A model generated the notes under the pieces. It did no database searches. It worked only from the letters and a program-made list of their open reading frames with translations, and was not told the DNA's origin. Positions 7,026-13,211 of a DNA stretch of 64,000 nt are shown piece after piece. The translations under genes were made by a program, and so were the position numbers. Numbering within the stretch: the stretch's first letter is position 1; every line of letters begins with the position of its first letter. The DNA is from Lasiosphaeria ovina (lineage: Eukaryota > Ascomycota > Sordariomycetes > Sordariales > Lasiosphaeriaceae): the NCBI GenBank assembly GCA_033439765.1, contig JAULSN010000004.1:1002001-1066000 (forward strand), given 5' to 3'.

Positions 7026-8176
7026 TGTGAGTATCTGGCAGAGGATGACGATGGTGCGCTTAATCATTCGCGGTATGGGACGGGTATGCTGTGTGATTGA
7101 AGACGCTGGCAGCCTCGTCTGTTCTCGATCTACCTAGAATATGGCGATGACTCTTCCCCGCCAGAAAGCCACGCAAGCCCAAAGGGGACTGGGAGGTGGG
7201 ATTGGGCAAGTGCTTACATTGTCCATGTGATCTTGCAGCGGAGTTGGGACCGATTGGCTCGCGCTTGCCAAGTTGCGCAGAAAGCTGCAGGCAGCTGCAG
7301 GGGGCCGGCTCAGCCACACTGGACCAGGCAGGAACAGACGGTGTCCTGCCGACCTTCCGGCTGATGAAAAGACGAGAGAGAAGCATCGGCATGCTGGTCA
7401 CCTGGTAAGCCTCATTCTCGGGACGAAAGGCGCTGGACGACGATGATGGTCATTTGATCGAAAGCTGGAGTGATTACCTACTGAAATCCGGTCTAGCAAG
7501 ATCGCATTGCTCAACGGCAGAGAGCGGGAAAATGATGTTATAATTGCGGTCTCCGCGAGCAGGAGCCACCAGCGACTGAGATTACCACGCTGGTGTCAGT
7601 GGACTTGTTTGATATTACTAGCTACCCAAGCGCGAACGCAGATATAGAAGAGCCTTGCTCATTATGGTATTTTCAGGTTAATCTTAAACTTCGCCGAATG
7701 AGACCATTGAAGAACGTGAGGATCATTCTTCATTACATACGGGAATCTAATTGTCTTCTAATCTTCACATGCAGTTAACGTCGGGGTGGTGTGCAGTGCC
7801 AGATTGGTTTTGTCTGTTGGCGCAACAGCACGCTGTTACAGCACCCAGGTCAAATCTGCGAAGGAGGGAACTGCGAATAACTAATACATGGCGTTATTTT
7901 AATTTGTTCCTGAACCACCCACCGCTCCTTCTCTTCTACTTTCTACACCGCACTTCCACCCTCTACATGCCGTTTCAACTCCTCCACAGTCCACACCTCA
8001 CTTCACCTTCTACACGTCGCTTCCACTCCTCCCACACCTCACTTCCACTCTTCTACGCCGCAATCTGTAGTATCCTTTTCCGAGCTGATCACACAGCCTT
8101 TCTCATCACCTTCGTAGTGATTGCGTTCCCCTCGAGAAACAAACCCGAACACGCGACGGTTAATTCCCTGCCACAA
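7026..8176. other. divergent intergenic region with pyrimidine-rich promoter
   Basis: Upstream of two divergently transcribed genes. 7910-8060 is strongly pyrimidine-rich on the + strand (runs of CT and CCAC), a common feature of fungal core promoters ahead of the phosphatase start at 8177. Short open frames here look non-coding. Confidence 0.45.
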
Positions 8177-11100
8177 TGCTCTGCTTCTCACGCTTCGTCG
8201 CCTTTGATCTTGAGTAAGGATTGAAAAATCAGTTTGCGCCTGTTCAATTCCTTGCTAACAAATTTCCGGCAGCGGCACCCTCTGGGGGGGCTGGCTCAAT
8301 GAAGCGAACATCGGGCTCATGGGGCGCGTCAGCAACAAGCTCGAAGATAATCTCGAGCTGGTAGGGGATAGCACCATCATAGACAGAATGTTTGTTCTGT
8401 ACCAGATAAGAGGTCAAGCAGGTCATTAATCAGGCGTGTTTAGGAATCGCAACTTCTGCGTCAAAATGTCGCCCGACATTCCAATCATTTTCGCCCAACT
8501 CATCTCCAACGGCCTACAAATCGCGATCGTTTCGCGAAATACCAACAAGAAAATGTCAGTATCCCATCACAGGCAACTAAAATATTTCGCTAACTATTTG
8601 GCGCAGCTGCCGCCGCGCATTGTGGCTACTCACCACCAAATACCTAGAACCAAGACATCAGCGACGCCCTGTTGAGTGCGTCAAGTATTGTGAGATATAT
8701 GACACTACGAGATTTGCCACGACCGGTGTCTATCTAATAATATTAACATTTGGGAGAACCGAAGAACAGGCATTTCAAAAAGATCTTTGGCTGGAGCAGA
8801 ATAAGACACCGCGATATGGTAATGTTTTCTCGCCACCTATCCACAGAATCGGGGCTACCGGAACATCTTCGTTTGCTAATTTCAGGCAATCCATTCACAG
8901 CTTTTCTTTGACGACCAAGCTATCAATCTAGAGCGGGAACTCTGGCAAGGTAAGATGAATCACATGGCCATTTTTGTAAACGATAGCTGTAAGCAGGAAC
9001 ACTCACCATCTAACAAAATTGGCTAATAGGTGCAGCGCTGCCAACAACTCAAATAAAGTCAACTTAAATAACTCAAATCAACTCAAATAGCCAACTCAAA
9101 TAAGCCATTTTTGAACCCAACTCAATTCAAATAGACTGGTTATTTGAGTTGGGTTTAGCTCAAATATTTCCATCGCTTGGGCCCTTTTTGGGCCCAGTTT
9201 TCCCTGCATTCCTGGGCTCAGGGCAGCATTTGGCTATGGCCAACCTGGTAAGATCTGGGGCTTCCTGGCCTAGGGAAAAATTCGACTGGACTGACCTGGT
9301 TTTCTGCAGTGCTATCGACCTGCGTTGCAGCGCTGTAACTATCGCCAAGTCAACAAGCTTCCTTTCCTGCCTTCCTACTGCGAATTCGCTGCTTCCTCGC
9401 TTCCAATATGCGAGCCTCGACTGTCAATACCGCGGCCCTCTCGTCGAACAGCCCGTACGTAGAAAAACGACCGCTTGACGTTCAAGACCGTACTTCCCGA
9501 ATTGCCCAGCAGTACCCTCGCCTGGCAGCGATCGACCCAGCGGACTTGGCCCACAAGGAAGTGAAGGACTGGCCTACGATAAAAACACCAGATGGTTCCT
9601 TTATACTAGAGTTTTGGGTGGGAAAAAGAATAGCAAGATCGTCGCAAATTGGGGGGCATGGTGACTGGCTGGCTAAGGTCGTTAATAACGTAGTAGAAGA
9701 GGGCTTATACTGGTGGGCGTGCCACTATTATAACAAGACCTTCAAAGTAGTAGCGACTTCGTTAGCGACTATACACCTCAAAAGTTAGCATCGTGAAAGG
9801 TTGAAGGCTGAAGAGGGTGGTGTTGAGCGAGGAAATAAGAGGCAGCGGCTACTATAGTTAGTCTAACAATAAGAGAGGGCAGTATTACTGCCTCATAAGC
9901 TCACCCTGCGAGAGAGGCTGTTAGCGATGATCCTTCGCTTGAACCTGCTATTTAATATCGTTCAATAACAAGAATTTCGCGATTTCTGTACTAATTTGAA
10001 CCCTGATAGGGTAGCTGAGGCGCTTCCTAGCTCACACACGACGATTCGGACGTATTTTGGCGATCGGTTTGATGCCCAGAAGGAAGTCCTGCGCTATAGG
10101 TTATCAGTATCGCTATATAAGAAGCACCTTTCCTTCGATATTTGGACCTCACTATCGACTGTTTCCTATATGGCGATCTTTGTGTACTACGCTGATCGCG
10201 ACGGCGCCCTCCACCACGATTTGTTAGCGATACCGCATATTCACGGCTTATATAGTGGCGAGAATCAGGCTCTTTACCTCATAAAGGTAGCTAAGGAATA
10301 CGGTATCGAGGACTCGCTTGGTTATTTCCAGTGTGATAACGTGGATTCGAACTCCTTGGCGGTTAAATTCATACTTGGCGCCCTGCAAATTGGCCTTAGC
10401 GATTAGGAACTCGAAGAATTGGCCCTATAGCGTCGGCTACGCTGTTTTGGCCACGTTCTAAACCTCGCCGCATAAGCCTTCATTCTAGGGAAGTCAACCC
10501 ACCTTGATCGAGCCTTTGACGATGACTTTATCGGTTAGTTATCGCTTGAAGAAGAAGAGGCCTTGCTAGTAGGTTGGCGGAAGTAAGGGCCAGTTGGTAA
10601 GCTGTATAACGTGGTGTACTTCATTCGCAGGTCGCCACAACGCCGCGAGACCTTCCTTCAAATCGCGCGCGGCCAGTTAAGTGAAGAAGAGGCTCGCGAA
10701 TTCGGCTCTATTGTTTTTGATAGGAATATCGAGGGCTTATAGCTTTATGGCGATAATTCGACGCGTTGGAACTCGGTGTTCTATATGATCTAGCGCGTAG
10801 TGCGATTGCGCGCCCAGGTCGATTTTTGGTGCTATCGCAACCAGGGCGAAAAAGACCCCAAAAAACGCCTCCCTACTGCTGACCTGTTGGAACCCTCTGA
10901 CTGGCATTAACTTACGCTTGTTTTGAATATTCTTGAGCCTTTTAGAAGGATCACGAAGTGGTTTGAAGGCAGATCAGCGAGTTTTCCTGAAGTTATCGCT
11001 ACAATAGAGTGGCTGACTGATCACCTTGCTCACCAGTAGCGAATTCTACACCCAAATTCCGAGGCGCCAACAGAGTTCACGGGTGGGCCTGTCTACGCCC

Positions 11101-12695
11101 AGCCAGAGATCACAGTCGCTAGCTAACAGGCTTAATCAATCGCCCTTGACGACGACGACGATGCCGACGACGATGCCGAGCCTTTCTTCTCTGCCGCAGC
11201 GAATTCGCAGCGACCTCGGCGTAAACGGCGGCTTCCTGGCCGGCTAGCCGACTCGGTCATTGACCTGCCGCGGCGCCTGCCGACCGGCCAGGTTATCCTT
11301 CCAGTCTTTGAGTTGGCCGACGACCTACCTGCCCTGCCCTCCTCCCCTGATCCTAACGACGATCACGTTTCCTTCGTACGAACCAGTCTCCAACTGGCTA
11401 TTCAGAAGCTTCAAGAATATATTGGGTTGATGGAAGAAAGCCCTGCTTACTGGGTCGCTATGCTCTTGCACCCTGGGCATAAGAAGAGGTGGATGGATAA
11501 ATGCCTAAGCCCTGATAGGGCCAGGAAGGTATTCGCTGCCTGCCGTGATCTTTACCAAGCTGAATACGCCGATCTTCCTGTGCCTACAGCGCCGCAGCCA
11601 CCAGCCCTGTCAGGCCCAGGCAGTCATCTTCGCTCTTACGACTACTACGACCCGCCTGAGGACCTGGGCCAGAAAGACGAGCTGGCTGAGTACTTTGCAG
11701 AACCTGTTTGGCCGGTGGATGATATACGAACCTGGTGGTTGGCTCATAAGGAACGCTGGCCTCGATTGTCAAGGATGGCTTTGGACCTGTTGTCGATACC
11801 AGCGATGTCATCTGAGTGTGAGAGGGCCTTTAGCCAAGCCAAGCTGGTCATTGGCACGCAACGACATTCCTTGGCCGACGATACCATTAATATCCTTATG
11901 TGCCTGAAGAGCTGGGGCTTGTTTTGAGGGCGTTGGCTGGATTCAGCGCTCTTTTCTGGTCTAGGGAGTCAATTCGGGGCCAAATTTGGCCAGATATTCG
12001 TGTTTTTTGGTGGTGCGGCAAGTTCCGTCAAATAAGGTCAAATAAAGCCAACTCAACTCAAATAGGGCCTCAACCCAACTCAAATACAGTATTTTGAACT
12101 CAATTCAACTCAAATATAGCTTCATATTTGAGTTATTTGAGTTGTTGGCAGCGCTGAACAGGTGTCGCGTTCCAAAAAGTCTCAAACCCCCACAATGGCG
12201 TCGACTGGGACGACTACCAGCGGGGACTAGAAATCTGGCGCAATCTTCAGGAAATCCACGTTCCTCTACCCAACAGCAGCCTGAAACTGACTCCTCGGGG
12301 TAACTTCTTGCCCCCGTCGGCCCTACAACTACTCCCCAATTGCCAGCCCATTGGTTATGTTGGCACGGATTACGCAACGGCAAAGTGCTACTACACAGGG
12401 AAGCGCCGTCTCAAGAGCAACCGGCCGTCGCGCTGGGGGTGGGGAATGTATGTTACCAACAACTCGGCTATGTATGTGTCCCTTCTGTTATTTTACCGTT
12501 TGCCTTGTTCTAACTCATGTCTACGCTGTATGTAGTGCCGCCGCATTTGCTCGATGGGGACGGGAAGATCGGTCGATCCATGACCTCTGGATACGTCGCG
12601 TATGGGCCCGAGACATAACAAAATTCATGAATATGAACAAGGCACTAAGTCGTTCCCGGCTCCCCGCCAACTTCAAGGCTCAAAACGCCGGCTGA
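8177..12695 (+). CDS. MDP-1-like HAD phosphatase gene with a hAT transposon in one intron
   Basis: Reconstructed exons: 8177-8214, 8273-8389, 8444-8554, from 8607, to 8818, 8901-8949, 12162-12471, 12536-12695. Joining exons 1 and 2 creates the HAD motif I DLDGTLWGGWLNE. Exon 3 gives the motif II region IAIVSRNTN. The exon ending at 8818 (HFKKIFGW) joins 8901 to give LFFDDQAINL, motif IV with the acidic pair. This order matches magnesium-dependent phosphatase-1 (acid phosphatase, HAD class). Exon 8901-8949 splices in phase to GVAFQKV at 12162, across the transposon. The C-terminal about 155 residues are an extension with no recognised domain. One junction is unresolved: between about 8690 and 8775 the frame must shift by one, through either a very short intron (8728-8764), an 85-nt intron (8685-8769) or a frameshift. 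Otherwise every exon is open, so the gene may still work if the long intron is spliced. Confidence 0.72.
9033..9056 (+). repeat. hAT left terminal inverted repeat (24 bp)
   Basis: Exact reverse complement of 12133-12156. Begins CAGCGCTGCC. Preceded by the 8-bp target duplication at 9025-9032. Confidence 0.96.
9046..9156 (+). repeat. hAT left subterminal repeat array
   Basis: The octamer ACTCAAAT occurs four times on the + strand and once inverted, with degenerate copies between. A matching array lies at the right end. In hAT elements such subterminal motifs are transposase-binding sites; that role is inferred here. Confidence 0.8.
9408..11927 (+). pseudogene. hAT transposase, inactivated by in-frame stops
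   Basis: One frame stays in register for 2520 bases with no indel, but carries 16 internal stops: five between 9786 and 9971 and eleven between 10404 and 11135. All are TAA or TAG and none is TGA. Recognisable parts are SFDIWTS and YFQCDNVDSNSLAV in the RNase-H-like core (10130-10370), an acidic linker (11145-11185) and the C-terminal hAT dimerisation region (about 11640-11927) with LLSIPAMSSECERAFSQAK. The stop pattern fits C-to-T change at CpA (Gln codons CAA/CAG, or TGG read through the other strand), as produced by repeat-induced point mutation. The start at 9408 is a guess; the upstream 350 bases are terminal non-coding sequence. Confidence 0.88.
12056..12147 (+). repeat. hAT right subterminal repeat array
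   Basis: Three direct copies of ACTCAAAT followed by two inverted copies (ATTTGAGT) running into the right inverted repeat. It mirrors the left array. Confidence 0.8.
12133..12156 (-). repeat. hAT right terminal inverted repeat (24 bp)
   Basis: Exact reverse complement of 9033-9056. Followed by the target duplication AACAGGTG at 12157-12164, whose internal CAG acts as splice acceptor for the host exon starting at 12162. Confidence 0.96.
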
Positions 12696-12899
12696 CTAGA
12701 GGGTTTAACTCTCTAGTATTTTGCCAGCACGGAATTCTTAAACCTCCATCCAGCTGGCGTCTTGGGCTTTGACCGGTAGATCTCCAGTATGGAAATAATA
12801 ATTAGTGATCTTGAAATACTAATACCCGCCCGCTAGGTTTGGGTCCCGGCGGGTGGCTTGCTGCGCCAAACCGATTCGCAACATTCGTCCGACGAGACA

Positions 12900-13211
12900 A
12901 TGGCTCAAGTCCAAATCGAGCGCGATAACAAAATTGCCGAGGTTTACGGTCTTGAGAAGCCCTACATCGTCTTCTCCAGGCACCACTGGATGTCTATACT
13001 TGAGAATATTCCGGGTCTTACTGCGGGCCAGAAGTTCAACGAGATGGTGGTGTATCCGCAAGTTCAGGAGGCGCTCTGTTTCGGCGAGCCCTGCTGTCCG
13101 TCGGATGCGACGTGGGAGACCTACCCGGTCCTGGGCTACCATATTCGCCTTCCGGAGCGGAACATTAAGCCGTTGCGATCACCGACGCGTCCGGCATTGA
13201 TTTGGCAGTGA
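12900..13211 (+). CDS. small hypothetical protein, 103 aa
   Basis: Open frame from an ATG in good context (GACAATGG) to TGA, with a protein-like composition: MAQVQIERDNK at the start and EALCFGEPCC in the middle. No signal peptide, no membrane segment and no recognised domain. It follows the MDP-1-like gene by about 200 bases. The antisense frame (12819-13142) is also open, so a chance ORF or a gene fragment is possible. Confidence 0.35.
   Translation: MAQVQIERDNKIAEVYGLEKPYIVFSRHHWMSILENIPGLTAGQKFNEMVVYPQVQEALCFGEPCCPSDATWETYPVLGYHIRLPERNIKPLRSPTRPALIWQ

What the first reader, a model, noticed from the sequence alone, without database searches (positions are those of the whole stretch)
8950..12164. 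hAT transposon landed on a splice acceptor and its target duplication rebuilt the acceptor
Removing the element gives an 80-nt intron (8950-9029) ending TAATAG before exon base GTGTCGCG. The 8-bp target site AATAGGTG spans that exon boundary. After insertion the right copy reads AACAGGTG, so an acceptor CAG sits directly before the same exon (12162). The host codon across the junction (G from 8949 plus GT from 12162) stays in phase and gives WQGVAFQKV. The gene could thus survive as a gene with a 3.2-kb intron containing the whole element; the left TAG acceptor would instead give an exon running into the transposon. The single T-to-C difference even changes the acceptor from TAG to the stronger CAG.
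Basis: partly seen in the sequence, partly recalled or inferred. Interest (0 to 1): 0.85.

Follow-up and report, generated by a model that had tools for sequence, protein, structure and literature searches.

The report
Fungal transposon inserted across splice site
In a fungus, most likely Lasiosphaeria ovina, a 3.1-kb jumping gene landed exactly on the end of a small intron and copied that intron end to its far side; the sequence suggests it cut the gene short rather than becoming a new spliceable intron, so this is mostly an ordinary, well-preserved gene disruption.

Summary
A 3,124-bp hAT element (9033-12156, 24-nt perfect inverted ends) sits in an MDP-1-like phosphatase gene. Its 8-bp target duplication (9025-9032 AATAGGTG, 12157-12164 AACAGGTG) spans the acceptor of an 80-nt intron, and joining 8949 to 12162 restores a conserved reading frame. 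(1) The T/C difference lies in a TpA/CpA context. RIP-type CpA-to-TpA change dominates this element family, so the left TAG is probably the mutated copy and CAG the original; the "T to stronger C" claim is probably backwards. (2) The distal acceptor has no YTRAY branch site within 270 nt, whereas the original branch site and acceptor remain intact. Using them gives a stop after 11 codons. (3) The deposited L. ovina model for this locus is a truncated 126-aa protein that never reaches 12162. Most likely the gene is truncated. One bold reading is not excluded: the inverted ends pair in RNA, loop out the element and bring the distal CAG to 24 nt from the old branch site, against 16 nt for the proximal TAG, allowing some correct splicing. 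I had no RNA evidence either way.

The parts
8176..8949 (+). 5' part of the host gene (MDP-1/Acid_PPase-like), exons about 8176-8213, 8273-8389, 8444-8554, 8607-8725, 8757-8818, 8901-8949; the 8725|8757 junction is uncertain
   Evidence: Pfam PF12689 E 1.9e-21; homologue alignment; model
8950..9029 (+). original 80-nt intron with donor GTAAGA, branch site CTAAC (9010-9014) and acceptor TAG (9027-9029)
   Evidence: sequence
9025..9032 (+). left target-site duplication AATAGGTG, spanning the acceptor; the T at 9027 is probably a RIP-type C-to-T change (inferred)
9033..12156 (+). hAT element, 3,124 bp, transposase frame broken by stops
9033..9056 (+). left terminal inverted repeat (perfect 24 nt)
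11136..11927 (+). open 3' part of the transposase with hAT C-terminal dimerisation region
   Evidence: PF05699 E 5.7e-21; Hermes transposase 6dww E 6.2e-10
12133..12156 (+). right terminal inverted repeat
12157..12164 (+). right target-site duplication AACAGGTG; duplicated (probably ancestral) acceptor CAG at 12159-12161
12162..13211 (+). 3' part of the host gene: exons 12162-12471, 12536-12641, 12837-13211 (the last intron has a GC donor); end of the phosphatase domain plus a conserved C-terminal domain

Best explanation
A hAT transposon inserted with its usual 8-bp target duplication, and the target happened to span the acceptor (most likely AACAG|GTG) of an 80-nt intron in a phosphatase gene of a fungus, most likely Lasiosphaeria ovina. 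The duplication copied the acceptor to both sides. Later RIP-type mutation (CpA to TpA) of the repeat, leaking a few bases outward, probably turned the left copy into AATAG. The old intron still has its donor, branch site and nearest acceptor, so it should be spliced as before; the exon then reads into the element and stops, giving a truncated protein. Shown: insertion, duplication, intron signals, stop, RIP-type spectrum in the copies. Inferred: polarity of the T/C change, leakage, and the splicing outcome.
For: Boundaries and duplications. Proximal splicing gives ...WQGAALPTTQIKST and a stop at 9065-9067. The six other introns of the gene that I count as well supported all have YTAAY beginning 17-26 nt before the exon (6 of 6; the doubtful 31-nt intron was left out and also has one); upstream of 12161 the nearest YTRAY is at 11887, about 270 nt away. 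RIP-type changes: window versus L003, 220 transitions and 1 transversion; window T against L002 C at 64 sites, 56 of them CpA; C>T changes unique to the window copy 6 of 91 CpA and 0 of 594 other C. The deposited protein P0134 (L. ovina, 126 aa, on a contig of the same length as the window's) is reproduced letter for letter with acceptor 8996 and stop at 9011-9013, before the element. None of the 13 hits to the joined host protein (candidates about 180-572 aa) was over 47% identical, so no deposited full-length model of this gene turned up. RIP leakage into single-copy sequence near repeats is reported (PMC2973834, passages read). Fusarium core-gene introns are 42-529 nt with CTRAY in 91% (PMC5677156, passages read); Fusarium is a relative in the same subphylum, not this genus.
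Against: The host exons carry no stop on either side of the element, which could mean continuing function; with element copies 93-96% identical I take this as weak (inference). The polarity test is not significant for the window copy alone (6/91 against 3/122, p=0.18); of its 14 unique changes 8 go the other way (3 T>C, 5 A>G), all at TpA, possibly because the other copies were hit in parallel. A minor Fusarium branch motif, CTCAA, occurs up to 12109. The deposited model is a database prediction for which I saw no RNA support, uses a different acceptor (8996) and skips exon 8607-8725.
Confidence: 0.75

Rival explanations
1. One reading: the spliceosome uses the right-hand CAG, removes the element inside a 3.2-kb intron and the gene stays functional.
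For: Phase and conserved junction are exact. Of the AGs tested between 9033 and 12161, and the one at 9029, only the one at 12161 leaves the full downstream frame. Exons are free of stops.
Against: No YTRAY within 270 nt of 12161; after the last CTCAA four other AGs come first (ending 12119, 12132, 12141, 12151). 201 AGs, 96 of them YAG, lie between 9015 and 12159. A nearer acceptor is intact. An intron of about 3.2 kb is far outside the 42-529 nt reported for Fusarium core genes. The deposited model is truncated.
Confidence: 0.08
2. Partial rescue by looping: the element's inverted ends pair in the pre-mRNA, so the old branch site sees the distal CAG at an effective 24 nt and a share of transcripts is spliced correctly.
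For: Terminal 24-mers pair at -41.9 kcal/mol; terminal 60-mers -48.1 against a mean of -12.5 (sd 3.0) for 200 shuffles; 23 of 24 terminal pairs are in the minimum-energy fold of 8950-12200; effective distance 24 nt against 16 nt for the proximal TAG. Stems that shorten the branch point-3' splice site distance are described in S. cerevisiae (PMC12350175, PMC9508853; passages read).
Against: The proximal TAG lies outside the stem, is nearer and is transcribed about 3 kb earlier. PMC9508853 says branch-proximal sites are preferred in S. cerevisiae, and that in S. pombe a factor (Sde2) becomes critical at 21 nt or more and introns with 30 nt or more are poorly excised.
Confidence: 0.07
3. The gene was already decaying before or independently of the insertion, so splicing at the element is irrelevant.
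For: Between exons 8607-8725 and 8757-8818 the only in-frame join I found is a 31-nt intron. The deposited model skips that exon. The intron at 12642 has a GC donor.
Against: The other exons are open and align with 12 homologues; GC donors occur at about 1% of Fusarium core introns.
Confidence: 0.1

Closest known systems
hAT superfamily transposons (Hermes; fungal members such as Restless, recalled)
   Same: 8-bp target duplication, terminal inverted repeats, hAT C-terminal dimerisation region
   Different: This copy's transposase frame is broken; catalytic residues were not examined; no search against named fungal hAT families was made
Introners using target duplications as splice sites (PMC9860276, passages read)
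   Same: A duplicated target supplies a 3' splice site next to the element
   Different: Here the intron already existed, the donor is host-derived and 83 nt upstream of the element, and splicing of the element is unproven; that paper calls ascomycetes an outlier for DNA-transposon signatures
Maize Ds insertions spliced as introns (recalled; no paper on this read here)
   Same: A hAT element inside a gene with splice sites at or near its ends
   Different: Ds cases have transcript evidence (recalled); this one has none
RIP and RIP leakage (PMC2973834, passages read)
   Same: CpA-to-TpA changes in repeats and nearby unique sequence
   Different: Only one flanking base is attributed to it here, by inference

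Membership tests
hAT superfamily | 8-bp target-site duplication | tested here: met
   Window 7 of 8; 8 of 8 in each of the three other copies with both ends found; 6 of 8 in a 93-bp derivative
hAT superfamily | short terminal inverted repeats | tested here: met
   24 nt perfect
hAT superfamily | hAT dimerisation region in the transposase | tested here: met
   PF05699 E 5.7e-21; Hermes E 6.2e-10
hAT superfamily | DDE catalytic residues | not tested
Introner | many sequence-similar copies acting as introns | not tested
   Only the flanks of L002 were read, with no gene test; flanks of other copies were seen for 12 bases only
Introner | precise removal by splicing | not testable with these tools
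   no RNA data
Introner | new intron made at a formerly intronless site | tested here: not met
   an intron-like 80-nt stretch with donor, branch site and acceptor already sits there and its removal fits the homologues
RIP | C-to-T changes concentrated at CpA | tested here: met
   L003: 25 of 34 unique C>T and 47 of 56 unique G>A in CpA context; window 6 of 6 unique C>T. L002 does not show it: 0 of 13 unique C>T at CpA
Acid_PPase/MDP-1 (host gene) | PF12689 domain | tested here: met
   E 1.9e-21, 77.1 bits against cut-off 27, on the protein of the joined exons

The most novel reading that the evidence does not exclude
A transposon with inverted ends that lands across a 3' splice site makes itself splice-silent: its ends zip up in the pre-mRNA, loop out the whole element and place the duplicated acceptor within reach of the host's own branch point, so the gene keeps working without any splice signal evolving inside the element. 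RIP of the upstream duplicate can then tune the competition between the two acceptors.
Probability: 0.06. Interest if true: 0.65.

Novelty: new member of a known kind. Interest (0 to 1): 0.3.

Why it matters
It is a clean natural case of a transposon duplicating a splice acceptor, in a genome where a mutation process (RIP) can explain the mismatch between the copies. If RNA showed the distal acceptor in use, it would be a route by which inverted-repeat elements become tolerated introns with no branch site of their own. If not, it is an ordinary gene disruption.

Tried and rejected
Empty site: no second copy of the host locus was found in the genome, and the only Acid_PPase match reported there (L037) is a different gene; that search did not list the window's own gene, which is split into short exons. 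I had no DNA of a fungal relative. The best hit for the neighbouring CinA gene is named L. miniovina (97% identity over 71% of the query), but the L. miniovina protein found for the host gene, P0007, is only 37% identical, so no ortholog could be compared. Target preference for splice acceptors: not pursued for lack of data; the other duplications are ATCTAGGT, CCTTGAGC and CCTAAGAA, and only the flanks of L002 were read, without a gene test. Pfam on the element's 5' open frame gave only one sub-threshold match. Literature: the listings showed no title or abstract start describing this case; only the papers cited were opened, and only passages of them.

Counting choices: for mutation polarity L002 was left out of the pooled test because it is the least mutated copy, so I read its 30 of 148 TpA>C as T shared by the other three. 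Without it CpA>T is 44/295 and TpA>C 10/363 (p 1.4e-8); adding L002 by hand gives 44/379 and 40/511, a much smaller difference. The comparison with L003 was invalid (wrong strand) and was redone.

Full report
Where it is. The window lies in a 51.7-Mb, 32-contig genome. The organism is most likely Lasiosphaeria ovina (Sordariales): the deposited L. ovina protein P0025 matches 100% on contig C31, whose length, 2,979,109, equals the contig length listed for that protein; and the L. ovina protein P0134 is listed on a contig of 5,987,086 bases, the length of the window's contig C27.

What is there. The host gene starts at about 8176 and encodes an Acid_PPase/MDP-1-like phosphatase (PF12689) that continues, by homology, to about 13211. 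It is interrupted by a 3,124-bp element, 9033-12156. The ends are 24-nt perfect inverted repeats starting CAGCGCTGCC; the 3' open frame carries the hAT dimerisation region (PF05699) and matches Hermes transposase. One search lists 44 matches in the genome (a lower bound; self matches, fragments and end-to-end matches included). The three other copies in which both ends were found (96, 93 and 95% identical) have perfect 8-bp duplications; a 93-bp derivative has one with two mismatches.

The duplication and the intron. Left AATAGGTG, right AACAGGTG. Left of the element there is a complete 80-nt intron: GTAAGA donor, CTAAC branch site, TAG acceptor inside the duplication. Right of it, CAG precedes the exon. 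The joined protein reads WQGVAFQKV; 10 of the 12 aligned homologues have W(Q/E)G(V/L)TF there, P0011 reads PEGVTF and P0012 has a gap followed by SVTF. That a duplicated acceptor appears is automatic for any duplication that spans one.

Which way did the T/C change go? Window and L003 differ by 220 transitions and 1 transversion. Changes concentrate at CpA: L003 has 72 of 90 unique C>T/G>A changes in CpA context, and all 6 unique C>T changes of the window copy are at CpA. That is the signature of RIP. L002 is an exception, with 0 of 13 unique C>T at CpA and 14 transversions from the window copy. The duplication mismatch is C in CpA against T in TpA, on the same strand as the window copy's six unique C>T changes (it has no unique G>A). 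In the window, L003 and L004 copies CpA>T runs at 44/295 and TpA>C at 10/363 (p 1.4e-8); for the window copy alone 6/91 against 3/122 (p 0.18); with L002 added by hand 44/379 against 40/511. I therefore hold CAG as ancestral at about 3 to 1, which is a judgement. RIP leaking into single-copy sequence beside repeats is described in Leptosphaeria and, as cited there, in Neurospora to at least 930 bp (PMC2973834, passages). One of the six unique changes (9065) is the first base of the stop that proximal splicing meets.

Would the distal acceptor be used? The six other introns of this gene that I count as well supported all carry YTAAY beginning 17-26 nt before the exon. Before 12161 the nearest YTRAY begins at 11887; only the minor motif CTCAA is closer (last at 12109), and four AGs lie between it and 12161. 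As a yardstick, 328 of 1,843 YAGs in the window have a YTRAY 6-40 nt upstream, so on this score the distal CAG looks like a background CAG. The intact proximal set should win; it yields ...WQGAALPTTQIKST and a stop at 9065-9067. The deposited model P0134 (126 aa) uses an even earlier acceptor (8996), stops at 9013 and skips exon 8607-8725. I saw no RNA support for it, but it does not join 8949 to 12162, and none of the 13 hits to the joined protein (candidates about 180-572 aa) exceeded 47% identity, so a deposited joined model did not turn up.

The reading I cannot exclude. The inverted ends pair strongly as RNA (-41.9 kcal/mol for 24 nt), and 23 of 24 of these pairs are in the minimum-energy fold of 8950-12200. 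With the stem closed, the old branch A (9013) is 24 nt from the distal CAG and 16 nt from the proximal TAG. Stems that shorten this distance are reported in S. cerevisiae (PMC12350175, passages). In S. pombe reporters a factor, Sde2, becomes critical at 21 nt or more and introns with 30 nt or more are poorly excised (PMC9508853, passages). Correct splicing of a minority of transcripts is thus physically possible, though the proximal site is nearer and made about 3 kb earlier.

State of the gene. Exons on both sides are free of stops, which at 93-96% copy identity I take as weak evidence for function. Two junctions are odd: a 31-nt intron at 8726-8756, and a GC donor at 12642. The gene may be decaying for other reasons.

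Verdict. A well-preserved hAT insertion across a splice acceptor; the survival story and the T-to-C strengthening are not supported by the sequence. Interest is modest unless RNA shows 8949|12162 joining.

Noticed in passing
12162-13211: The host phosphatase has a conserved C-terminal domain present in the 12 fungal homologues aligned; in a predicted model of homologue P0001 the Foldseek hits include ADP-ribosyltransferase-fold structures besides MDP-1 (E about 1e-4 to 7e-4, TM-score by query about 0.25), hinting at a phosphatase fused to an ADP-ribosyltransferase-like domain for which Pfam gave no family in P0001 or P0003.
   Followed up: partly
8607-8757: An exon conserved in homologues could be joined in frame only by a 31-nt intron in my model; the deposited gene model skips the exon.
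   Followed up: partly
12642-12836: Homology suggests a GC-AG intron of 195 nt; about 12673-12717 within it is a short repeat with two further matches, both on contig C30.
   Followed up: no
L004: One element copy is itself interrupted by about 1.2 kb of other sequence.
   Followed up: no
L016/L024: A 93-bp miniature derivative with the same inverted ends (one mismatch at the left end) on contig C23.
   Followed up: no
9033-12156: RIP-type differences between the window copy and L002 lie mostly on the + strand (56 CpA sites against 10 TpG sites), a strand bias.
   Followed up: no
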